Assembly (NCBI RefSeq): GCF_001598215.1
Contig: NZ_BCXJ01000001.1
Coordinates: forward strand, 682,001 to 746,000
Origin: Shouchella clausii
Lineage (GTDB): Bacteria; Bacillota; Bacilli; Bacillales; Bacillaceae_D
DNA: 64,000 bases
Reading direction: 5' to 3'
Shown one piece after another: positions 3,635 to 11,828 of the stretch (its first letter is position 1; each line of letters opens with the position of its first letter). The notes under the pieces were generated by a model. The model was not told the DNA's origin. It saw only the letters and a program-made list of their open reading frames with translations, and made no database searches. The translations under genes were made by a program, and so were the position numbers.

Positions 3635-3675
3635 GTGCAGGTAGGGTTAAAAAAATGAAAAAGGAGCGAGTAGCC

Positions 3676-4521
3676 ATGACGAAAAAAATGAATAAGTATA
3701 ATGGGAAAAAACTTAGCCGTGGAGAACCTCCCAATTTTAGCGGTCAGCATTTTATGCACAATAAACGGTTGTTAAAGGAAATTGTTGATAAAGCAGAAGT
3801 CTCTGTCCGTGATACGGTTTTAGAGCTGGGGGCAGGGAAAGGCGCGTTGACGACGATTTTAAGCGAACGCGCAAACCAGGTTCTAGCCATCGAGTATGAC
3901 CAAAAATGTATTGAAGCGCTGCAATGGAAACTAGTTGGATCAAAAAACGTGTCCATTCTCCATCAAGATATCATGAAGGTGACGTTGCCAACGGAACCGT
4001 TTGTTGTTGTTTCCAACATCCCTTATGCGATCACAACAGCGATCATGAAAATGCTGTTAAACAATCCAAAAAACAAATTACAACGAGGGGCAATTGTAAT
4101 GGAGAAAGGAGCGGCAAAGCGGTTTACAAGCATTTCACCGAAAGACGCTTATGTGATGGCTTGGCATATGTGGTTTGACATCCACTACGAAAGGGGAATT
4201 TCCAGAAGTGCATTTTCGCCGCCGCCGAAAGTCGATTCTGCCCTTGTCCGCATTGTCCGCAAACCGCATCCCCTTTTTCCTTATAAAGAGGCGAAAGCGA
4301 TGCATGACTTTTTATCGTACGCACTAAACAACCCTAGAGCACCCCTTGATCAGGTATTACGAGGAATTTTTACCGCCCCTCAAGCAAAAAAAGTGCGGCA
4401 GGCAATCGGCGTCAAACCTGAGACGCCAGTGGCCATGCTTCATGCCAGGCAGTGGGCGATTGTTTGTGACGCGATGGTTCGGCATGTTCCAAAAGTGTAT
4501 TGGCCAAGGCGAAAGAGATAA
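3676..4521 (+). CDS. erm: 23S rRNA adenine-N6 methyltransferase, Erm (ErmD/K/Erm(34) branch)
   Basis: Dimethylates A2058 of 23S rRNA and so confers macrolide, lincosamide and streptogramin B resistance. The protein has 281 residues. S-adenosylmethionine motif I is LELGAGKGALT at 49-59, the acidic motif AIEYD at 71-75, HQDIM at 96-100, and the catalytic NIPY motif at 114-117; a basic RNA-binding tail ends in PRRKR. ATG 3676 is preferred because AAGGAG lies 10 nt upstream; an in-frame ATG at 3655 has no such site. Expression is probably induced through the leader peptide and attenuators upstream. I recall a chromosomal erm(34) in B. clausii, and the N-terminus looks like it, but the exact class needs alignment. 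Confidence 0.93.
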   Translation: MTKKMNKYNGKKLSRGEPPNFSGQHFMHNKRLLKEIVDKAEVSVRDTVLELGAGKGALTTILSERANQVLAIEYDQKCIEALQWKLVGSKNVSILHQDIMKVTLPTEPFVVVSNIPYAITTAIMKMLLNNPKNKLQRGAIVMEKGAAKRFTSISPKDAYVMAWHMWFDIHYERGISRSAFSPPPKVDSALVRIVRKPHPLFPYKEAKAMHDFLSYALNNPRAPLDQVLRGIFTAPQAKKVRQAIGVKPETPVAMLHARQWAIVCDAMVRHVPKVYWPRRKR

Positions 4522-4661: not shown

Positions 4662-5063
4662 TTATGAGTTGTTGCTGTTTCGTTGTCCGCCTTTTTGACC
4701 AATTTCTTGGTAGAATTCTTTGTCGTGGTTTTGACTAGTGGTTTGTCCACCTTTTTTGCCGATTTCTTGGTAGAATTCTTTGTCGTGGTTTTGGCTAGTC
4801 GTTTTACCGCCTTTTTCACCGATTTCTTGGTAGAATTCTTTGTCGTGGTTACGGCTAGTGGCTTCTCCGCCTTTTTCGCCAATTTCTTGGTAGAATTCTT
4901 TGTCATGGTTGCGGCTAGTGGCTTCTCCACCTTTTTCGCCAATTTCTTGATAGAATTCTTTGTCGTGGTTACGGCTTGTTGTTTCTCCGCCTTTTCTTCC
5001 TGCTTCCTCAACACTCATTTTTCCGTTGTTTCCATTATTGTTGCGGTTATTATTTTGTGCCAT
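4662..5063 (-). CDS. gsiB: GsiB-like general stress protein with five KGG repeats
   Basis: A 133-residue, very hydrophilic protein of the B. subtilis GsiB (KGG/Con-10, LEA-like) type, thought to protect cell contents in stress. After an Asn-rich start (residues 1-14) come five near-perfect 20-residue units built on HDKEFYQEIGEKGG (residues about 33-125). The DNA repeats every 60 bp. AAAGGAGG stands 7 nt before the ATG. A sigma-B-like promoter lies upstream at 5098-5122, as expected for gsiB. The repeat number probably varies between strains by slippage or recombination. Open frames on the other strand and in a second minus frame are shadows of the repeats. Confidence 0.88.
   Translation of the reverse strand: MAQNNNRNNNGNNGKMSVEEAGRKGGETTSRNHDKEFYQEIGEKGGEATSRNHDKEFYQEIGEKGGEATSRNHDKEFYQEIGEKGGKTTSQNHDKEFYQEIGKKGGQTTSQNHDKEFYQEIGQKGGQRNSNNS
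4700..4995. repeat. tandem 60-bp coding repeat, about five copies
   Basis: The block around GAATTCTTTGTC recurs every 60 bp at roughly 4711, 4771, 4831, 4891 and 4951. The repeats are inside the gsiB-like gene and keep frame. Confidence 0.9.
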
Positions 5064-5122: not shown

Positions 5123-5434
5123 CCCTTGGTTTCATTTTGCTCTAATTATCCTAGTAAAATATCTTTCATTTCTAATTCTGTATATTTTTGGGTTTTGTGT
5201 AAGTCTGTAGGTTTAAATATCGGGCAGAAGAATGGTAGGATCCTACATAGCTGGCTGTTTTGACCGTCATAACAAACGATTCATTCTGCGGTAAACCTGT
5301 CTCATTAGGAAGGAAATCGCTTCTTGTTTCGCGAAAGGGTAATCGCTAAGACACCTTTAAAGAGGATGGCCGTGTTTTGGCGTGTGGAAGACAAAACACG
5401 GATGAAAAAATAACGAAAGTGAGTGTGTGAACAA
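5123..5434. other. intergenic region without visible gene
   Basis: About 310 bp upstream of the gsiB promoter and before the PfpI-like gene. I see no coding sequence, and no promoter that I would defend. Confidence 0.5.
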
Positions 5435-5986
5435 ATGGCTAAAATGCTCATTTTGACAGGGGACGCTGTAGAGGCGCTGGAAGTGTTTTATCCGTATTAC
5501 CGTTTTCTTGAAGAAGGATTTGAAGTCGATATCGCCTCTCCTGCGGTGAAAAAGCTCTATACGGTAAACCATGATTTCGTTGAAGGGTACGAGACATTTG
5601 TAGAGAAGCCGTCCTATCAATTAGACAGCCACATTGCCTTTGAAGATGTACGGCCTGATGAATACGCGGGTTTAATCATTCCTGGGGGACGGGCGCCAGA
5701 GTATATTCGTATCCACGAGCACACAGCAGCAATTGTCAATCATTTTCTTGATAACAAGAAGCCAGTAGGAGCTATTTGTCACGCTGTACAAGTGCTAGCA
5801 GCAGTTGCAGGCGACCGCCTTAAAGGCAGAGCCCTAACAGCGTATACCGCTTGCGAGCCAGACGTGAAAGCACTAGGCGCCGAGTTTCGCAAAGAGAGCG
5901 TTTATGTCGATGGCAACCTCGTCTCCGGTCACGCCTGGGATGATCTGCCACAGTTTATGCGCGAATTTCTTAAGCTGACGCGGTAA
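5435..5986 (+). CDS. DJ-1/PfpI family protein
   Basis: A 183-residue cytoplasmic protein of the DJ-1/PfpI superfamily, in which members act as deglycases, chaperones or stress proteins. The nucleophile elbow AICHAVQVL holds the conserved cysteine (about residue 114), and LIIPGGRAPEYIR supplies the acidic and glycine-rich loop. ATG 5435 gives the usual MAKMLILTGD start; a GTG at 5423 is also possible, and neither has a strong ribosome binding site (GAAAGTGAG is the best). A good terminator follows. Related to YraA/YfkM-like proteins of bacilli; activity cannot be assigned. Confidence 0.85.
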   Translation: MAKMLILTGDAVEALEVFYPYYRFLEEGFEVDIASPAVKKLYTVNHDFVEGYETFVEKPSYQLDSHIAFEDVRPDEYAGLIIPGGRAPEYIRIHEHTAAIVNHFLDNKKPVGAICHAVQVLAAVAGDRLKGRALTAYTACEPDVKALGAEFRKESVYVDGNLVSGHAWDDLPQFMREFLKLTR

Positions 5987-6004: not shown

Positions 6005-6036
6005 GAGGCCATCTGTCAAAGATGGCCTCTTCTTTT
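6005..6036 (+). terminator. terminator of the PfpI-like gene
   Basis: GAGGCCATCT and AGATGGCCTC form a perfect 10-bp stem with a 5-nt loop, followed by TTCTTTT. Confidence 0.9.
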
Positions 6037-6057: not shown

Positions 6058-6912
6058 TTAAACCGAAGCTTTCTCCAGTGCGAATACCGCCATTTTTGCT
6101 TTGATGACTTGTTTGATTTGTTCATTGCAAGGAATTAAATGGTTACGCAATGAGTCTGTCAAAGCGGCTTCTGCAAATTGGTGTTTGGCTGTGCGTGTCC
6201 AAGCGATTAACAATTCTGTGCCGACGTTGATCTTGACAATGCCTCTCGTTACACATTTTTGGATATCTCCATCCTTGACGCCTGTGCCGCCATGGAGGAC
6301 CAATGGGAGTGCATGGTTGTTGGCGATCGTCTCAAGCAAATCAAACTGCAGATTGGCTTTTGATTTGTATTGGCCGTGTGTCGTCCCAATAGACAAAGCG
6401 AGTGCGTCAACAGTCGCGTGTTGTAAAAACTCGTTGACTTCTTCTGGTTGAGTGAAGCTTACTTGCGCAGAATCGATCATGACCCCGTCTTCGGCGCCGC
6501 CGATTATGCCGAGTTCTGCTTCGACGGAGACGTTGTGCGGATGGGCGTACGTGCTAACTTCTACAGTTTTTTCAATATTTTCTGCTATCGGAAGTGCTGA
6601 ACCGTCAAACATCACAGAGGAATAGCCTGCATCGACTGCCTGTTTGATTTTCGCAAAATCTGTGGCATGGTCAAGATGCAGTGTAACCGGTACAGGAAGT
6701 TGCTCGGCAAGAGATTTGACGACAGCGACAAATACGTCATAGCCTACATAATCGGCTGTGCCTGCTGTTGTTTGGATAATAATCGGCAAGTTCGTTTCTC
6801 TCGCTGCATGGAGCATAGCTGGAACCATTTCTAGACAATGGGCGTTAAAGGCGCCGACGGCAATGCCTCGTTCTTTCGCGTAAGCAAGCGTTTCTTTTAA
6901 ATTTGCATACAT
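6058..6912 (-). CDS. class II ketose-bisphosphate aldolase (Fba/KbaY/GatY type)
   Basis: Zinc-dependent aldolase of 284 residues, cleaving a ketose 1,6-bisphosphate to dihydroxyacetone phosphate and glyceraldehyde 3-phosphate. LHLDHATD (about 78-85), GTTHGQYK (about 175) and LHGGTGVK (about 205) carry the metal histidines, and NVGTELL is the phosphate loop. NVGTEL resembles the tagatose aldolases KbaY/GatY rather than glycolytic FbaA. It is the last gene of a leftward operon, 18 nt after the PTS IIC gene, and presumably splits the bisphosphate made by the kinase at 8538. Whether the sugar is a fructose, tagatose or another epimer is unknown. Confidence 0.9.
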   Translation of the reverse strand: MYANLKETLAYAKERGIAVGAFNAHCLEMVPAMLHAARETNLPIIIQTTAGTADYVGYDVFVAVVKSLAEQLPVPVTLHLDHATDFAKIKQAVDAGYSSVMFDGSALPIAENIEKTVEVSTYAHPHNVSVEAELGIIGGAEDGVMIDSAQVSFTQPEEVNEFLQHATVDALALSIGTTHGQYKSKANLQFDLLETIANNHALPLVLHGGTGVKDGDIQKCVTRGIVKINVGTELLIAWTRTAKHQFAEAALTDSLRNHLIPCNEQIKQVIKAKMAVFALEKASV

Positions 6913-6930
6913 GCTATTTTCACTCCTTTT

Positions 6931-8196
6931 TTAATTGAACCATTCTAAAACGTACCCAAGCAAAATCCCAATTGTAATGACGTCGGAGTCGCTAAACGTG
7001 ACATTTTCAAGTCCAAACGACCCGAGAACAGGGATTAAAAGAGCTGGCAGCAATGTAATAAATAGACCGTGGACAATTCCGCCAATCGCTGCCCCGCGGA
7101 ATCCGCCTATTGCATTGCCAAATATGCCAGCCGTGCCGCCAGCGAAAAAGTTGGTCAGCATTCCCGGCAAAATCATGGCTAAACCGATGACCGGGAAAAA
7201 CAGCATGCCGATGACGGTGCCAATGGTGGTGAAAATAAAGCCGACAATTACGGCATTCGGCGCATATGGGAACAACACAGGGCAGTCTAGCGCTGGGACA
7301 GAATTAGGGACAACTCGCTTTGCAATTCCTTTAAATGCCGGGACAATTTCGCCAAGGAAGAGGCGGACGCCAGCGAGAAGCACGTAAACACCAACGACAA
7401 ATTGAATCGCTTGCATAAACGCAAAGACTAAATAGTGCATCCCGTCGCTGTATGCTTCGATAAAGGCTGGTCCTGCAAAAATAGTAGGGATGAGGTAAAT
7501 AGGAATCATGACAACCATCATCGATAAATACGTATCTTGCAGAAATTCCAAGCTTTTTGGCAAGTTGATGTCTTCCGTGGACTTTTCTTTGTTGCCGACA
7601 AGTTTTGCCGTGCCTGCCTGGACAAGGTAGCCAAGTGTACAATAGTGGCCTAATGCAATGTCATTTGAGCCTGTAATTTTGCGAACAAACGGTTGGGCGA
7701 TCGCTGGCATAAGCACAGCCATTGATCCAGCAATGACGCCGCCGAGTAGAATGAGCGCCAGGCCGCGGAGGCCGCCCATATAGCCGACGACGGAGCAAAC
7801 AGTCGCCATCCACAATGAGCCTTGCCCGGTTAAGAAGATGTATTTTATTGGTGTGAAGCGGGCGATTAAAAGGTTGACTGCAAACGCTAAGACCATAATC
7901 AAAGCCGTTTCTCGGCCAAGTGTTTGCTGGGCGATGCCAGCAATAGCGCCTACATCGGTGACGATGCCTCGCATCGCAAACGCTTCTTGGAAGACGTCGC
8001 CTAGAAACTGCAAAGTGCCTACAATAATTTGTGTACCTGCTAAAAGGACAAGAAAACCGAGCATTGTTTTCATTGTGCCTGACACGATTTGGCCAATTGA
8101 TTTTTTTAAGGCGATGAGGCCAATACAAGCAATGAGTGAGACGAGAATTGGCGCTTGTGATAAGATGTCGTTTACTAAAAAGTGCAAAATCTCCAT
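6931..8196 (-). CDS. PTS IIC component, ascorbate/galactitol-like (UlaA/SgaT family)
   Basis: A 421-residue membrane permease with about eleven hydrophobic segments, of the UlaA (SgaT) family that brings a sugar into the cell while IIB phosphorylates it. The sequence around TGQGSLWMATV and NAIGGFRGAAIGGIVHG is typical of the family. It follows the IIB gene by 39 nt, with GGAGG before its ATG. The ascorbate catabolic enzymes (UlaG, UlaD, UlaE, UlaF) are all absent; a sugar kinase and aldolase are present instead, so I infer a ketohexose or similar rather than ascorbate as substrate. Confidence 0.9.
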   Translation of the reverse strand: MEILHFLVNDILSQAPILVSLIACIGLIALKKSIGQIVSGTMKTMLGFLVLLAGTQIIVGTLQFLGDVFQEAFAMRGIVTDVGAIAGIAQQTLGRETALIMVLAFAVNLLIARFTPIKYIFLTGQGSLWMATVCSVVGYMGGLRGLALILLGGVIAGSMAVLMPAIAQPFVRKITGSNDIALGHYCTLGYLVQAGTAKLVGNKEKSTEDINLPKSLEFLQDTYLSMMVVMIPIYLIPTIFAGPAFIEAYSDGMHYLVFAFMQAIQFVVGVYVLLAGVRLFLGEIVPAFKGIAKRVVPNSVPALDCPVLFPYAPNAVIVGFIFTTIGTVIGMLFFPVIGLAMILPGMLTNFFAGGTAGIFGNAIGGFRGAAIGGIVHGLFITLLPALLIPVLGSFGLENVTFSDSDVITIGILLGYVLEWFN

Positions 8197-8235
8197 TGGG
8201 GCTCCTCCCTTTTCATGATTGTCTCGTTTGTTTCG

Positions 8236-8535
8236 TTATAGGGCTTGTTTTGCTTTTAGGACGGGAACAAGCTTTTCTTCAATTTCTTTTTGGTCGACAA
8301 GCCGTTTTAAATAAAGAATGTCCGCTTCAATTTGGTAGTGTTTTAATTGCGATTCAAAGTTTTGGCCAGTAATTAAAATGTCTGCCTGTTGGCTGCTCGC
8401 AGAGGATATATCACAATGGTTCAATGTTGCCTCTACTCCAAGTTTTTCGAGCACGGATTCCACCGCCATCTCACAGGCAAAGCTGCTTCCAAGTCCTGCC
8501 CCGCATACCATTAAAATCGATAGTTTTTTTGCCAT
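8236..8535 (-). CDS. PTS IIB component (UlaB-like)
   Basis: A 99-residue cytoplasmic phosphocarrier. Cys11 in VCGAGLGSS is the expected phosphorylation site and the P-loop-like motif is characteristic of the lactose/galactitol/ascorbate IIB fold. It starts 2 nt after the kinase gene ends, so translation is coupled, and its ribosome binding site (GGAGGG) lies inside that gene. It would receive phosphate from the IIA domain at the C-terminus of the regulator at 9526 and pass it to the sugar carried by the IIC protein. Confidence 0.92.
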   Translation of the reverse strand: MAKKLSILMVCGAGLGSSFACEMAVESVLEKLGVEATLNHCDISSASSQQADILITGQNFESQLKHYQIEADILYLKRLVDQKEIEEKLVPVLKAKQAL

Positions 8536-8537
8536 GA

Positions 8538-9542
8538 TTATCCCTCCAATTGGATCAGTTGGTTTTCATTAAAAGCTAGTTGCATAAACTCTTTTGCCAA
8601 AGTCGGCGATTGGTCGATTGCTGTTAGGGGAACAGCTTTGACATGCCCTTCCTTTAACGCTGCAAGAGTTGCCTTTTCGCCGTTAAGCAACGCATCGACT
8701 GCACATTTGCCCATCTGCTTGGCCATCAGGCAGTCATAGCTTGTTGGGTCACCTGCTCGTTGTGTATAGCCAAGTATGGAGAGCCGCACCCGCTTTCCTG
8801 TTGATGACTCAAGCGCTCGGGCAAGGGCAAACGACACGCCCTGGTCGCCTGCAGAAAAATGCTTGTTCAAATAGATGCCTTCCGATACGACAACGATGAC
8901 GCTTTTGCCTCGTTCTGAGCGAGTCTGTACTTCTGTAATGAACTCGTCTATATTGAGCTCATATTCAGGAAGGAGTACGATGTCTGCGCTAGCAGCAACA
9001 GCAGCTGCAAGGGGAAGTTGGCCGCAGCGCCCGCCGAAGGTTTCGACCATAAAAATCCGTCCAGGCAAGTTAGCTGCTGTTTGGCGGAGCCGATGGAGCG
9101 AATCGGCAATTGCATTGACGGCTGTGTCGTGGCCAATCGTGTATTCACTTCCACCAATATCGTTGTCAATCGTCATTGGTACAACCGCAACTGGCAAACT
9201 AGCGCTTAACGCTTTTGCCCCTTGTGCCGAACCGTTGCCGCCGCATACTATGAGGGCATCCATGCAGTCTTGCTTTAGTTTTTCGAGGACACGCTTTTGC
9301 CCCGCCTCATGGAGCATGGATGTGCTGCGGCCAGAGTGACATAGCAACTCTCCCTGAAGCACAGCCCCCCTCGCTGTCGTTGGTAATATGGCGACAGGGT
9401 CCTGCTCAATAATCCCGTCAAATCCGCCATGATAGAAATAAAGGTTAACACCCGGCGTTTGGGCAATCGCCGCAATGGCACCATTTACCCCTGGTGCATC
9501 GCCGCCGCTTGTTATTAAAGCAATGTTACGGGCCGTCGACAT
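8538..9542 (-). CDS. phosphofructokinase-A family sugar-phosphate kinase, divergent
   Basis: A 334-residue PFK-A family enzyme expected to phosphorylate a sugar 6-phosphate to the 1,6-bisphosphate. GGDAPGVNGAI near residue 14 and TIDNDIGGSEYTIG near residue 123 are the ATP/Mg and catalytic motifs, and GYTQRAGDPTSYD near residue 259 is the substrate region. Two positions differ from glycolytic enzymes: GGDGS is GGNGS, and the histidine of LGHIQRGG is a tyrosine. ATG 9542 follows AAGGGGAG and overlaps the regulator's 3' end by 17 nt. The protein is the second gene of the PTS operon, so its substrate is probably the PTS-imported sugar 6-phosphate rather than fructose 6-phosphate of glycolysis. 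Confidence 0.85.
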   Translation of the reverse strand: MSTARNIALITSGGDAPGVNGAIAAIAQTPGVNLYFYHGGFDGIIEQDPVAILPTTARGAVLQGELLCHSGRSTSMLHEAGQKRVLEKLKQDCMDALIVCGGNGSAQGAKALSASLPVAVVPMTIDNDIGGSEYTIGHDTAVNAIADSLHRLRQTAANLPGRIFMVETFGGRCGQLPLAAAVAASADIVLLPEYELNIDEFITEVQTRSERGKSVIVVVSEGIYLNKHFSAGDQGVSFALARALESSTGKRVRLSILGYTQRAGDPTSYDCLMAKQMGKCAVDALLNGEKATLAALKEGHVKAVPLTAIDQSPTLAKEFMQLAFNENQLIQLEG

Positions 9543-11646
9543 AGGCTTTCTCCCCTTCTTCGTTAAGAACGATTTTGGTTAACGTTTGCTTAGAGGTAGC
9601 AGCTTTTATTGCGTCTAACCGTTGTTCGTCATTGATTAGTTTCACAATGGAACGAAACGCTTTTAAGTGTGAAAAACTGTCAGAAGCGGCCAAGCAAATT
9701 ACAAGAAACACCGGGTCATTGTCTGGATTGCCGAATGGAATGGGCTCTGCTAGCTGGATAAAACTAACACTTAGCTCATTTACGCCATCTTCTGGCCGGG
9801 CGTGAGCAATCGCAACCCCTGGAGCAAGGACAATATAAGGCCCGTATTCTTGCACAGAGGCGATCATTGCTTCTGCGTAATTTTTTGTAATGGCGCCGCT
9901 TCTTTCTAAAGGTTTAGCGGCCGCATAAATGGCTTCTTGCCAATTGGTGGCGCGAACGTTTAGTTCAATATGGTCTTCGCTCATTAGCTCGGCTAACAAT
10001 GGCTGGATCACTCCTTCGTAAATTGGCAACTGATGTTTTTTAAACAGAGACGTTAATTCTTCCATAAACGGTTTAAGCATGAACGATTTGCTGTTTGCTT
10101 TCGCAATTTCCACGATCGACCGGAAAAAGTCTTCGTTCGATGCTGTATGTTTCTGCCGTTGCCTTTGTTTCGATTTCGCGATTTGTGCAATCGTTGTTTG
10201 GATTAAGGCTGTGTCCTCATCCTTAAAAAACGGGGACACTTGTAAGCAAGGCACGCCTTTGATGGAAAGGGGCAATGTCGTTAAGACAAAGTCAACTTGC
10301 AATTTTTGGATGACATCGACTTCATAACGGGATAATGTACCTAATACTTCAATGGAAGAAAAGCGCGTGTACAAGCTTTCCTCGATTAAACGGGCATTGG
10401 TAATGCCATGTCCGCAAATAATCACTGTCCGGTACACAAGTGTTTGCCGCTTCAGTCTCTCAGAGGCGACGCAAGTATGCATGGTCAAGTAGGCAATTTC
10501 ATCGATTGGAATCGTTAATTGCAGCGTTCGTTCTAATTCGTTTCCTGCCAAGCGGCATGCTGCAAATAAATCAGGGTATTGTTTGACAATGACATCGGCA
10601 ATCGGGTTTTCAATTGGCAGCTCGTTTTTCAGCCGTCTTGCCATTGTCTGAATATGGGCGTAAATGTTTGAAAAATATTCTTGGTCATTTATAAATGGTA
10701 GTCCTGTTTGTTTTGTGATAGAGTGCACAAAGTCCATGACAGCGACTTGGATTTGACCCCAATTCCCTTCCATTTTGAATAAGAATTGCTCTTCTTTAGC
10801 AGTCGAAAGAAATAGCGATAATACGTAAATTTCGGTGTTCGGATCGGATAATGGTTTTTGAAAATCAAATGTTTGGGCAAGAGCAAATGCTTGTTTGTCC
10901 AGTTGTTCTGGGATCATTGCCTTGTCCGTCAATAAGTAGCCCATTTTGATGCGCTTAAGCGCTAGCAATGCATACAAGCCAATTTCTAAATGAGTTTCGT
11001 ACGTAAAACGGCCATTCTTTTTCAGTTCTATTGAACGAATCCATGCCAAAGTCTGTTCCAACGCAGTGGCTTCCACCAATTTACAGCAATAATCTTCAAA
11101 AAATGTGGCTGCTTCGCTTTGTTTGAACATGTCCAAGCCTCTATTACGGCAGGCCCGTTTTAAAAACCGGAAAAGCCAACGCCGCTTCGCGAACTCGGAT
11201 CCGACAACGGCGAATCCTTCTTTCGGCAAACTGTCTAATCGCAAATTGTCGGCCAGCAGCTCTGTCCGCAGCCGCTGAATGTCTTTGTCGACTGTGCTTT
11301 TACTCACTTGCAAGTGTTCGCAAATCGAAGGGACCGTCACCTTCTCCTCGGCGTAAAAGAAAGCAAATACGAGAAAAGCTTCGCGGTCTGCGGCATCGGG
11401 AAAGTGGAGTGTGTCAGAGCCAAGAAGCTTGTGTAGCACCTCTTGATCGCAGTCATAATAAACGCCTTTTTTCCGATTCCGCTTAAGCAGAGGCTGGTGA
11501 TGATCCCTTAAATAATCATCGATTTCCTCAAGGGCATAACGGATCGTCCGCGCAGAGACTTGGAATGTTTCGGAAAGCGATTTAACGGGCACATAGCTCT
11601 TATGCCTAACAATTTCTTGGAAGATTTCTGCATGTTTGCGTCTCAT
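9526..11646 (-). CDS. PRD-containing transcriptional activator with IIB-like and IIA domains
   Basis: A 706-residue ManR/MtlR-type regulator that controls the downstream PTS operon by its own phosphorylation. Order: HTH (residues 10-60), second Mga-like HTH (95-145), PRD1 (about 195-285, His219), PRD2 (about 300-400, His331 and His390), galactitol IIB-like domain with Cys411 in VIICGHGI, and a IIA domain (555-700) with His615 in GVAIAHARPED. No separate IIA gene exists in the operon, so this IIA domain may serve transport as well as regulation. AGGAGG stands 8 nt before the ATG. It is the first gene of the operon and a cre-like site lies just upstream. Confidence 0.92.
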   Translation of the reverse strand: MRRKHAEIFQEIVRHKSYVPVKSLSETFQVSARTIRYALEEIDDYLRDHHQPLLKRNRKKGVYYDCDQEVLHKLLGSDTLHFPDAADREAFLVFAFFYAEEKVTVPSICEHLQVSKSTVDKDIQRLRTELLADNLRLDSLPKEGFAVVGSEFAKRRWLFRFLKRACRNRGLDMFKQSEAATFFEDYCCKLVEATALEQTLAWIRSIELKKNGRFTYETHLEIGLYALLALKRIKMGYLLTDKAMIPEQLDKQAFALAQTFDFQKPLSDPNTEIYVLSLFLSTAKEEQFLFKMEGNWGQIQVAVMDFVHSITKQTGLPFINDQEYFSNIYAHIQTMARRLKNELPIENPIADVIVKQYPDLFAACRLAGNELERTLQLTIPIDEIAYLTMHTCVASERLKRQTLVYRTVIICGHGITNARLIEESLYTRFSSIEVLGTLSRYEVDVIQKLQVDFVLTTLPLSIKGVPCLQVSPFFKDEDTALIQTTIAQIAKSKQRQRQKHTASNEDFFRSIVEIAKANSKSFMLKPFMEELTSLFKKHQLPIYEGVIQPLLAELMSEDHIELNVRATNWQEAIYAAAKPLERSGAITKNYAEAMIASVQEYGPYIVLAPGVAIAHARPEDGVNELSVSFIQLAEPIPFGNPDNDPVFLVICLAASDSFSHLKAFRSIVKLINDEQRLDAIKAATSKQTLTKIVLNEEGEKAYVDGP

Positions 11647-11673
11647 TCGCCACCCTCCTTTGGCTTAATCATA

Positions 11674-11687
11674 TGTGACCGCTTTCA
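11674..11687 (-). promoter_or_regulatory. candidate cre (CcpA) site
   Basis: On the minus strand TGAAAGCGGTCACA matches the cre consensus TGWAARCGYTWNCW at 12 of 14 positions. It is about 28 bp upstream of the start of the PRD regulator, in a position to block the PTS operon when glucose is present. Confidence 0.45.
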
Positions 11688-11828
11688 TAATTTGAAGCTT
11701 AAAGTTCTTCCATTTTTAGCGGCAAAGAAGTAGGCGGCTAAGGAGGTCGAAAAGGTATATAAATTTGAGAGTGATGATTGGTTCGTGAAAAGGAAGGCGA
11801 AGGGAAGCGAAGGGTTTAAGCTTATGAA

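What the first reader, a model, noticed from the sequence alone, without database searches (positions are those of the whole stretch)
6058..11646. Ula-type PTS with a divergent phosphofructokinase and class II aldolase: substrate unknown
The IIC/IIB pair is of the ascorbate (Ula) family, but every ascorbate catabolic enzyme is missing. Instead there is a PFK-A kinase (GGNGS in place of GGDGS, Tyr in place of the active-site His) and an aldolase with a tagatose-type NVGTEL loop. The regulator carries the only IIA domain. A plausible route is import as a ketohexose 6-phosphate, phosphorylation to the 1,6-bisphosphate, and cleavage to triose phosphates. An epimer such as tagatose, psicose or sorbose fits better than ascorbate.
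Basis: partly seen in the sequence, partly recalled or inferred. Interest (0 to 1): 0.75.

Follow-up and report, generated by a model that had tools for sequence, protein, structure and literature searches.

The report
Ketose-importing sugar operon, substrate unknown
Five neighbouring genes in a soil Bacillus relative (Shouchella) look like a complete kit for importing a ketose sugar and cutting it in two; similar kits occur in several distant bacterial groups, and which sugar they use is still open.

Summary
The five genes exist as described, as one tight operon. The transporter resembles the ascorbate (Ula) type, but ascorbate is very unlikely: seven of ten reliably aligned ascorbate-contact residues are replaced, and a search for UlaG found no match in the genome. 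I compared 41 loci carrying the same IIC clade (Bacillales, Enterococcus, Streptococcus-like, Fusobacteriota, Enterobacterales). Every one encodes IIA, IIB, IIC, at least one kinase (divergent PFK 7, P-loop kinase 18, both 16) and exactly one kind of bisphosphate aldolase (class II 34, LacD-type 7). Two unrelated enzymes alternating at each step behind one transporter clade strongly support: ketose in -> ketose phosphate -> ketose bisphosphate -> DHAP plus an aldose phosphate. The PFKs, class II aldolases and IICs each form their own supported clade. Some sister Ula-type transporters lie beside allulose-6-P epimerase, transaldolase, F6P aldolase or transketolase, also pointing to ketoses. Tagatose and allulose are weakened, not excluded, because some carriers appear to have other gene sets for them; a heptulose such as sedoheptulose is a live, untested candidate. 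The mechanism is inferred from sequence; the substrate is unproven. Verdict: a real, apparently uncharacterised variant of a known PTS-kinase-aldolase design.

The parts
9526..11646 (-). Operon regulator, 706 aa: HTH/Mga - PRD - (IIB-like stretch, by eye) - EIIA_2; its C-terminal IIA domain is the only IIA of the operon and keeps the IAHARPEDG site
   Evidence: Of 41 clade-IIC loci all have a Ula-type IIA, fused to the regulator or free-standing
8538..9542 (-). Divergent PfkA-type sugar-phosphate kinase, 334 aa
   Evidence: residue table; own clade 95/95; model pLDDT 86; best PDB match 1pfk, 32% identity
8236..8535 (-). PTS IIB, 99 aa, with CGAGLGSS phosphocysteine-type motif (motif recalled)
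6931..8196 (-). PTS IIC of the Ula/GAT type, 421 aa, in a clade distinct from UlaA
   Evidence: (NF009551, 674.6 bits against cut-off 657)
6058..6912 (-). Class II ketose-bisphosphate aldolase, 284 aa, of a clade distinct from FbaA, GatY/KbaY and YdjI
11668..11696 (-). Promoter-like TTCAAA-17-TATGAT in front of the regulator (consensus match only; such matches are no commoner than in shuffles)
11674..11688 (-). cre-like site ATGAAAGCGGTCACA inside that promoter-like match; a relaxed match (TGAAAGCGGTAACA) lies at the same place in L024
   Evidence: 3 in the window, 1.8 expected by chance; 25 of 100 shuffles had 3 or more; strict match upstream of 1 of 11 related operons, L026

Best explanation
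A self-contained catabolic operon for a ketose. EI/HPr phosphate passes to the IIA domain carried on the regulator, to IIB, and to a ketose bound in a Ula-like but non-ascorbate IIC, which releases a ketose phosphate inside. The divergent PFK adds a second phosphate at C1, and the dedicated class II aldolase cleaves the bisphosphate to DHAP plus glyceraldehyde-3-P (from a D-ketohexose) or erythrose-4-P (from a heptulose). PRD phosphorylation, and perhaps CcpA at the cre-like site, control transcription. Shown by sequence: gene order, families, conserved pairing of transporter, kinase and aldolase, pocket changes, monophyly. Inferred: the reactions, their order, the position of phosphorylation, the phosphate donor and the regulation. 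Not known: the sugar.
For: 41 of 41 clade-IIC loci carry IIA, IIB, at least one kinase and exactly one kind of bisphosphate aldolase (the window and 6 loci from a PFK query carry PFK by construction, 34 came from IIB or IIC queries; all 24 of 24 clade-IIC genomes listed among 394 Enterobacterales were read). At each catalytic step two unrelated protein families alternate (PFK or P-loop kinase; class II or LacD-type aldolase) behind the same IIC clade. IIC clade 100/100, class II aldolase clade 100/100, PFK clade 95/95 beside PfkA with more distant PFKs as outgroup. Ascorbate-contact residues (list from PMC6048161, passage): 7 of 10 reliably aligned ones replaced in the window; H135->Q, Q139->W and Q195->F/Y in 18 of 18 clade members. 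No UlaG match in this genome. Other Ula-type loci carry ketose-phosphate enzymes in 12 of 29 neighbourhoods read. The PFK keeps D127, R162, E222, R243 and R252 in 16 of 16.
Against: R171 is lost in all 16 operon PFKs examined and D103 is changed in 7, so catalysis by the PFK is not certain; 16 loci carry both kinases, which simple replacement does not explain. In two loci the operon lies next to or inside an ascorbate (ula) cluster (L082, L095), which may hint at a link to ascorbate. One of the contact residues, T86, also varies in the P. multocida UlaA (PMC6048161), so it counts little. 17 of the 29 other Ula-type neighbourhoods show no recognised ketose enzyme. The IIA tree did not resolve the place of the window's fused IIA. 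A TPR-like protein in 38 of 41 loci has no role in this scheme and is absent here.
Confidence: 0.75

Rival explanations
1. The substrate is D-tagatose: a second, Ula-type tagatose PTS with PfkA- instead of PfkB-type kinase.
For: The route and the DHAP + GAP products fit; LacD-type aldolases (best NCBIfam model 'tagatose 1,6-diphosphate aldolase', below its cut-off, for the two scanned) replace the class II enzyme in 7 of 41 loci. The rival cluster L119 may serve fructose instead: its kinase scores 323.7 against the 1-phosphofructokinase cut-off of 292.
Against: This genome has the Fru-type PTS + PfkB-type kinase + GatY-like cluster L119, laid out like the B. licheniformis tagatose set (layout partly recalled), and a galactitol-type cluster (L121); Klebsiella pneumoniae has a tagatose PTS (PMC10101011, passages). 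The aldolase is outside the GatY/KbaY clade.
Confidence: 0.2
2. The substrate is D-allulose (psicose), cleaved as the 1,6-bisphosphate instead of being epimerised.
For: A sister Ula-type PTS lies directly upstream of an allulose-6-P 3-epimerase (NF007266, 364 bits against cut-off 271) in L138 and L169, so transporters of this kind may handle allulose.
Against: G691 carries both that AlsE-linked PTS and the PFK operon (L169, L082), so a second allulose system would be redundant there; many K. pneumoniae use an unrelated permease locus for psicose (PMC6020474, passages). FBA-type class II aldolases usually want 3S sugars (recalled).
Confidence: 0.15
3. The PFK-like protein is not a kinase here (sensor or remnant), and the housekeeping PfkA, or in other genomes the P-loop kinase, does the phosphorylation.
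For: R171 lost in 16 of 16, D103 changed in 7 of 16; the C-terminal half of the human platelet PFK aligned shows Gly at the same place; 18 of 41 loci manage without it.
Against: Catalytic D127 (TIDND or TVDND) and the phosphate-binding arginines are kept in 16 of 16; 7 loci, including this one, have no other recognised kinase in the operon; this genome has only one other PF00365 protein.
Confidence: 0.12
4. Ascorbate or a close relative (erythorbate, dehydroascorbate) is the substrate.
For: Ula family resemblance; the operon lies beside ula genes (ulaA, cut by the stretch, to ulaF) in L082 and between a second regulator (ulaR by position) and ulaG in L095.
Against: Seven of ten aligned contact residues replaced; no UlaG match in this genome; L082 and L095 have genuine ula genes as well as this operon; a PFK plus bisphosphate aldolase has no place in the ula route.
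Confidence: 0.04

Closest known systems
Ula (L-ascorbate) PTS, E. coli UlaABC + UlaDEFG
   Same: IIC/IIB/IIA of the same superfamily; IIC about 27% identical to E. coli UlaA; H194, D314 and F362 kept
   Different: Contact residues otherwise replaced; none of UlaDEFG beside it; followed by a kinase and a bisphosphate aldolase in all 41 loci
D-tagatose PTS of Klebsiella and B. licheniformis (TagTH/TagK/GatY; PMC10101011, passages)
   Same: Logic: PTS, then sugar-phosphate kinase, then class II aldolase to triose phosphates
   Different: Fru-like transporter and (recalled) PfkB-type kinase there; Ula-type IIC and PfkA-type kinase here; aldolase in a separate clade
Galactitol (Gat) PTS + GatY
   Same: GAT superfamily transporter and class II aldolase
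   Different: No dehydrogenase here; aldolase not GatY-like
PfkA (E. coli PFK-1)
   Same: Fold, D127, R162, E222, R243, R252
   Different: G124M, M169F/L, R171G/A in all 16 examined; sister clade to PfkA
SBP pathway (PPi-PFK + FBA on sedoheptulose-7-P; PMC7029132, abstract and passages)
   Same: PFK then aldolase acting on a ketose phosphate
   Different: There S7P arises inside the cell and the PFK is PPi-type; a sedoheptulose PTS is not mentioned in the parts I read

Membership tests
L-ascorbate (Ula) PTS system | Ascorbate-binding residues of UlaA | tested here: not met
   7 of 10 reliably aligned contact residues differ (position 410 aligned differently in two runs and is set aside; T86 also varies in P. 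multocida UlaA)
L-ascorbate (Ula) PTS system | UlaD/E/F/G catabolic enzymes in the operon or genome | tested here: not met
   None in the first 20 kb of the window; UlaG 0 matches in the genome (query is 56% identical to E. coli UlaG, but no positive genome ran in that search); UlaE only weak 22-29% matches outside the window; UlaD and UlaF not searched genome-wide
D-tagatose PTS (Tag) system | Fru-type IIBC and PfkB-type TagK (kinase type recalled) | tested here: not met
   IIC is PF03611, kinase is PF00365
D-tagatose PTS (Tag) system | Activity on tagatose phosphates | not testable with these tools
   needs assays
PfkA (F6P 1-kinase) | PFK fold and catalytic TIDND Asp | tested here: met
PfkA (F6P 1-kinase) | F6P-site residues M169, R171, H249 (roles recalled) | tested here: not met
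   F, G, Y in the window; TIGR02482 219.6 bits against cut-off 371
GatY/KbaY tagatose-bisphosphate aldolase | Phylogenetic placement with GatY/KbaY | tested here: not met
   17 operon aldolases form a separate 100/100 clade; TIGR01858 252 bits against cut-off 444
Class II ketose-bisphosphate aldolase (broad) | PF01116 / TIGR00167 above cut-off | tested here: met
   310 bits against 25.5 and 270 bits against 215.6

The most novel reading that the evidence does not exclude
The operon is a PTS for a ketoheptose such as sedoheptulose (or mannoheptulose): import as the 7-phosphate, phosphorylation to the 1,7-bisphosphate by a PFK refitted for a longer sugar, and cleavage to DHAP and erythrose-4-phosphate, that is, an SBP pathway used for eating a plant sugar. 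Sister Ula-type transporters paired with transaldolase or transketolase would be the other routes for such sugars.
Probability: 0.22. Interest if true: 0.85.

Novelty: new variant of a known kind. Interest (0 to 1): 0.6.

Why it matters
A transporter clade that NCBI's model names only 'PTS sugar transporter subunit IIC' (and that also passes an ascorbate-transporter model) proves to be paired with a ketose-phosphate kinase and an aldolase in every one of 41 loci read, across Bacillales, Enterobacterales, Enterococcus, Streptococcus-like and Fusobacteriota genomes. That gives it a pathway, defines a PFK subfamily sister to PfkA and an aldolase subfamily with no tested member known to me, suggests that other Ula-type transporters labelled ascorbate also carry ketoses, and turns 'which sugar?' into one short assay panel. 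If the sugar is a heptulose it would give an entry route for a plant sugar into bacteria.

Tried and rejected
Ascorbate as substrate: rejected on pocket residues and lack of a UlaG match. GGNGS and Tyr249 as specificity marks: rejected, since Asn is not conserved and Tyr occurs in PfkA-type sequences. A tree of PFKs without an outgroup could not show whether the operon PFKs are one clade and warned of long branches; with more distant PFKs as outgroup they are, 95/95 (14 of the 16 operon rows, L024 and L093 left out as near copies, and 8 of the 19 PfkA-type rows dropped; the tool warned of odd letter make-up in three rows). A degenerate DNA pattern for the IIB motif was too strict and, as I judge, mostly gave chance matches. 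Promoter and terminator scans were no richer than shuffles; the hairpin at 6005-6029 has its T-rich tail on the plus strand and so more likely ends the plus-strand gene 5423-5986. The IIA tree did not resolve whether the window's fused IIA groups with free-standing operon IIAs; it separates Ula-type from Gat/Fru/Mtl-type IIAs only weakly. The P-loop kinase model was too poor to search (pLDDT 41). Ten literature searches listed no paper that I recognised as describing this operon; the library lacks most subscription journals. Papers: PMC10101011 (abstract, outline, passages), PMC6048161 (passages), PMC6020474 (passages), PMC7029132 (abstract, outline, passages), PMC6685057 (one passage); the rest were seen in listings only.

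Full report
WHAT IS THERE. The window belongs to a Shouchella genome (its PFK is 100% identical to that of S. tritolerans and 90% to that of S. rhizosphaerae). Five genes on the minus strand form a tight operon: regulator 11646-9526, PFK-like 9542-8538, IIB 8535-8236, IIC 8196-6931, class II aldolase 6912-6058. Spacings are -17, 2, 39 and 18 nt. Domain searches confirm each call. The regulator has HTH/Mga, PRD and a C-terminal EIIA_2 domain. A cre-like site (11674-11688) sits inside a promoter-like match before the regulator, and a relaxed form lies at the same place in L024. Both are consensus matches only: three such cre matches in 64 kb are within chance (1.8 expected), and of 11 related operons only L026 has a strict match upstream. 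Within the genus the operon-type PFK is patchy: 3 of 12 same-genus genomes.

RELATED LOCI. From a PFK query, an IIC query on plasmids, IIB queries in 247 Enterobacterales, 398 Bacilli and 98 Fusobacteriota, and an IIC query in 394 Enterobacterales (the two Enterobacterales samples overlap), I read 41 loci, window included, whose IIC belongs to the window's clade. The count: IIA 41 of 41; kinase present 41 of 41 (PFK only 7, P-loop kinase only 18, both 16, one of these with the PFK in two frames, L042); exactly one kind of bisphosphate aldolase 41 of 41 (class II 34, LacD-type 7); a small TPR-like protein 38 of 41, absent in both Shouchella and in L097. The window and six loci found by the PFK query carry PFK by construction; the other 34 were found by IIB or IIC. 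Some of the 41 are close relatives of each other, so they are not 41 independent cases. In one search there is a clean gap between clade IICs (58% identity or more to the query, 24 genomes) and all other listed matches (48% or less), and all 24 were read. Of the genomes with an IIB match I read 30 loci in 28 of 45 matched Enterobacterales (mostly, not strictly, the better scores), and 8 of 20 matched Bacilli and 3 of 11 matched Fusobacteriota.

THE PARTS ARE SEPARATE SUBFAMILIES. IIC: the clade has 100/100 support against UlaA and other Ula-type IICs. Against the UlaA contact residues listed in PMC6048161, the window has V86, G87, Q135, G136, W139, H194, Y195, D314, L358, F362 for T, Y, H, I, Q, H, Q, D, I, F; position 410 aligned differently in two runs and is set aside, and T86 is also changed in P. 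multocida UlaA. Q135, W139 and F/Y195 hold in 18 of 18 clade members. Kinase: 16 operon PFKs share M124, F/L169, G/A171 and Y/F249 (E. coli numbering), while 19 PfkA-type sequences have G, M, R and H (Y in two). D127, R162, E222, R243 and R252 are kept in all 16. Position 103 is N, D, G or E. With five more distant PFKs (KTVDND motif, taken as PPi or mixed type but not family-checked) as outgroup, the 14 operon PFKs used form one clade (95/95), sister to PfkA. The model is PfkA-like (pLDDT 86; 1pfk, TM 0.86). The donor cannot be read off: G104 is ATP-like, Lys124 of PPi enzymes is absent (rule recalled). Aldolase: 17 operon aldolases form a 100/100 clade apart from this genome's seven other PF01116 proteins and from E. 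coli GatY, KbaY and YdjI. Its GGxED/EG and N[VI]GT segments differ from both this genome's FbaA (NVNTEN) and GatY/KbaY (NVATELK).

THE IIA ON THE REGULATOR. Every operon has a Ula-type IIA: fused to the regulator in some (window, L026, L028, L044, L094 and others) and free-standing in others (L025, L092, enterics). The fused domain keeps the active-site His in IAHARPEDG. The simplest reading is that it is the transport IIA of this operon as well as part of the regulator. This is inference: the IIA tree did not resolve it, and 18 other EIIA_2 domains exist in the genome, one of them with a second Ula-type PTS on C5 (L101).

SISTER TRANSPORTERS POINT TO KETOSES. I read 29 neighbourhoods of other Ula-type PTS. 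Beside the PTS genes, 12 have an enzyme of ketose phosphates: AlsE-type epimerase in L138 and L169 (NF007266 above cut-off); F6P aldolase in L148 and L151 (57% to FsaA); transaldolase in L149 and L150 (72-73% to TalB); split transketolase in L167, L168, L172, L173, L174 (families checked for L173 and L174 only; the others by eye); PfkB kinase plus class II aldolase in L175. In 17 I recognised none. Genome G691 holds three Ula-type PTS: ula genes (ulaA, cut by the stretch, to ulaF) and the PFK operon side by side (L082), and the AlsE-linked one (L169), so in that genome the PFK operon most likely serves neither ascorbate nor allulose. In L095 the operon sits between a second regulator (ulaR by position) and ulaG of an ascorbate cluster. 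That could be chance insertion or a shared habitat; I cannot tell.

WHICH SUGAR. The operon carries no isomerase, epimerase or reductase, so the aldolase products should be central metabolites. That admits D-ketohexoses (DHAP + GAP) and ketoheptoses of suitable shape (DHAP + erythrose-4-P). Tagatose: this genome has a MurR/RpiR-like regulator + PfkB-type kinase + Fru IIBC + IIA + GatY-like cluster (L119) and a galactitol-type cluster (L121), and Klebsiella pneumoniae has a tagatose PTS (PMC10101011), which lowers it; against that, the L119 kinase passes the 1-phosphofructokinase cut-off (323.7 against 292), so L119 may be a fructose set. Psicose: many K. pneumoniae use a permease locus with AlsE (PMC6020474), and see G691 above. 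Fructose would be redundant. Sedoheptulose: E. coli PfkA has very poor affinity for S7P (Km 2.5 mM against 0.065 mM for F6P, PMC7029132), so a dedicated PFK variant would be needed; the transaldolase- and transketolase-linked sister PTS fit S7P-like sugars; nothing shows it directly. Redundancy arguments are weak, because bacteria often keep parallel systems. My substrate odds: heptulose 0.22, tagatose 0.20, allulose 0.15, D-sorbose 0.08, fructose 0.07, other 0.28.

VERDICT. Observation real; route well supported by comparison; substrate open; a new variant of the PTS-kinase-bisphosphate aldolase design with three unassigned subfamilies.

Noticed in passing
L027:6718-7308, L044:10608-11237: Two types of small P-loop kinase (AAA_33; weaker CPT or zeta-type similarity) take the place of, or accompany, the PFK in related operons; no tested function known to me.
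   Followed up: partly
L025:10593-10988, L027:10623-10928: A small TPR-like protein lies near IIC and the aldolase in 38 of 41 operons, an unusual partner for a PTS; absent in Shouchella.
   Followed up: no
L167, L168, L172, L173, L174: Other Ula-type PTS beside a split transketolase, perhaps for another ketose such as apulose.
   Followed up: partly
L149:5513-6472, L150:4291-5247: Other Ula-type PTS directly upstream of a TalB-like transaldolase in two loci of one IIC clade, with different gene order.
   Followed up: partly
L101 (own genome C5:536846-553121): Second Ula-type PTS with IIA, IIB, IIC and a SIS-domain sugar isomerase-like protein; substrate unknown.
   Followed up: no
L045: A copy on an Enterococcus faecalis plasmid record typed as conjugative has its regulator and IIC in pieces and lies near transposase-like genes (by eye).
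   Followed up: no
L042:5625-6676: In the Klebsiella record the PFK reads in two frames; sequencing error or real frameshift not decided.
   Followed up: no
window 4662-5063: Minus-strand array of near-identical EIGEKGGEATSRNHDKEFYQ repeats (KGG-type stress protein, name recalled), open in several frames.
   Followed up: no
window 3655-4521: Erm-type 23S rRNA dimethyltransferase-like gene (recognised by eye, not searched).
   Followed up: no
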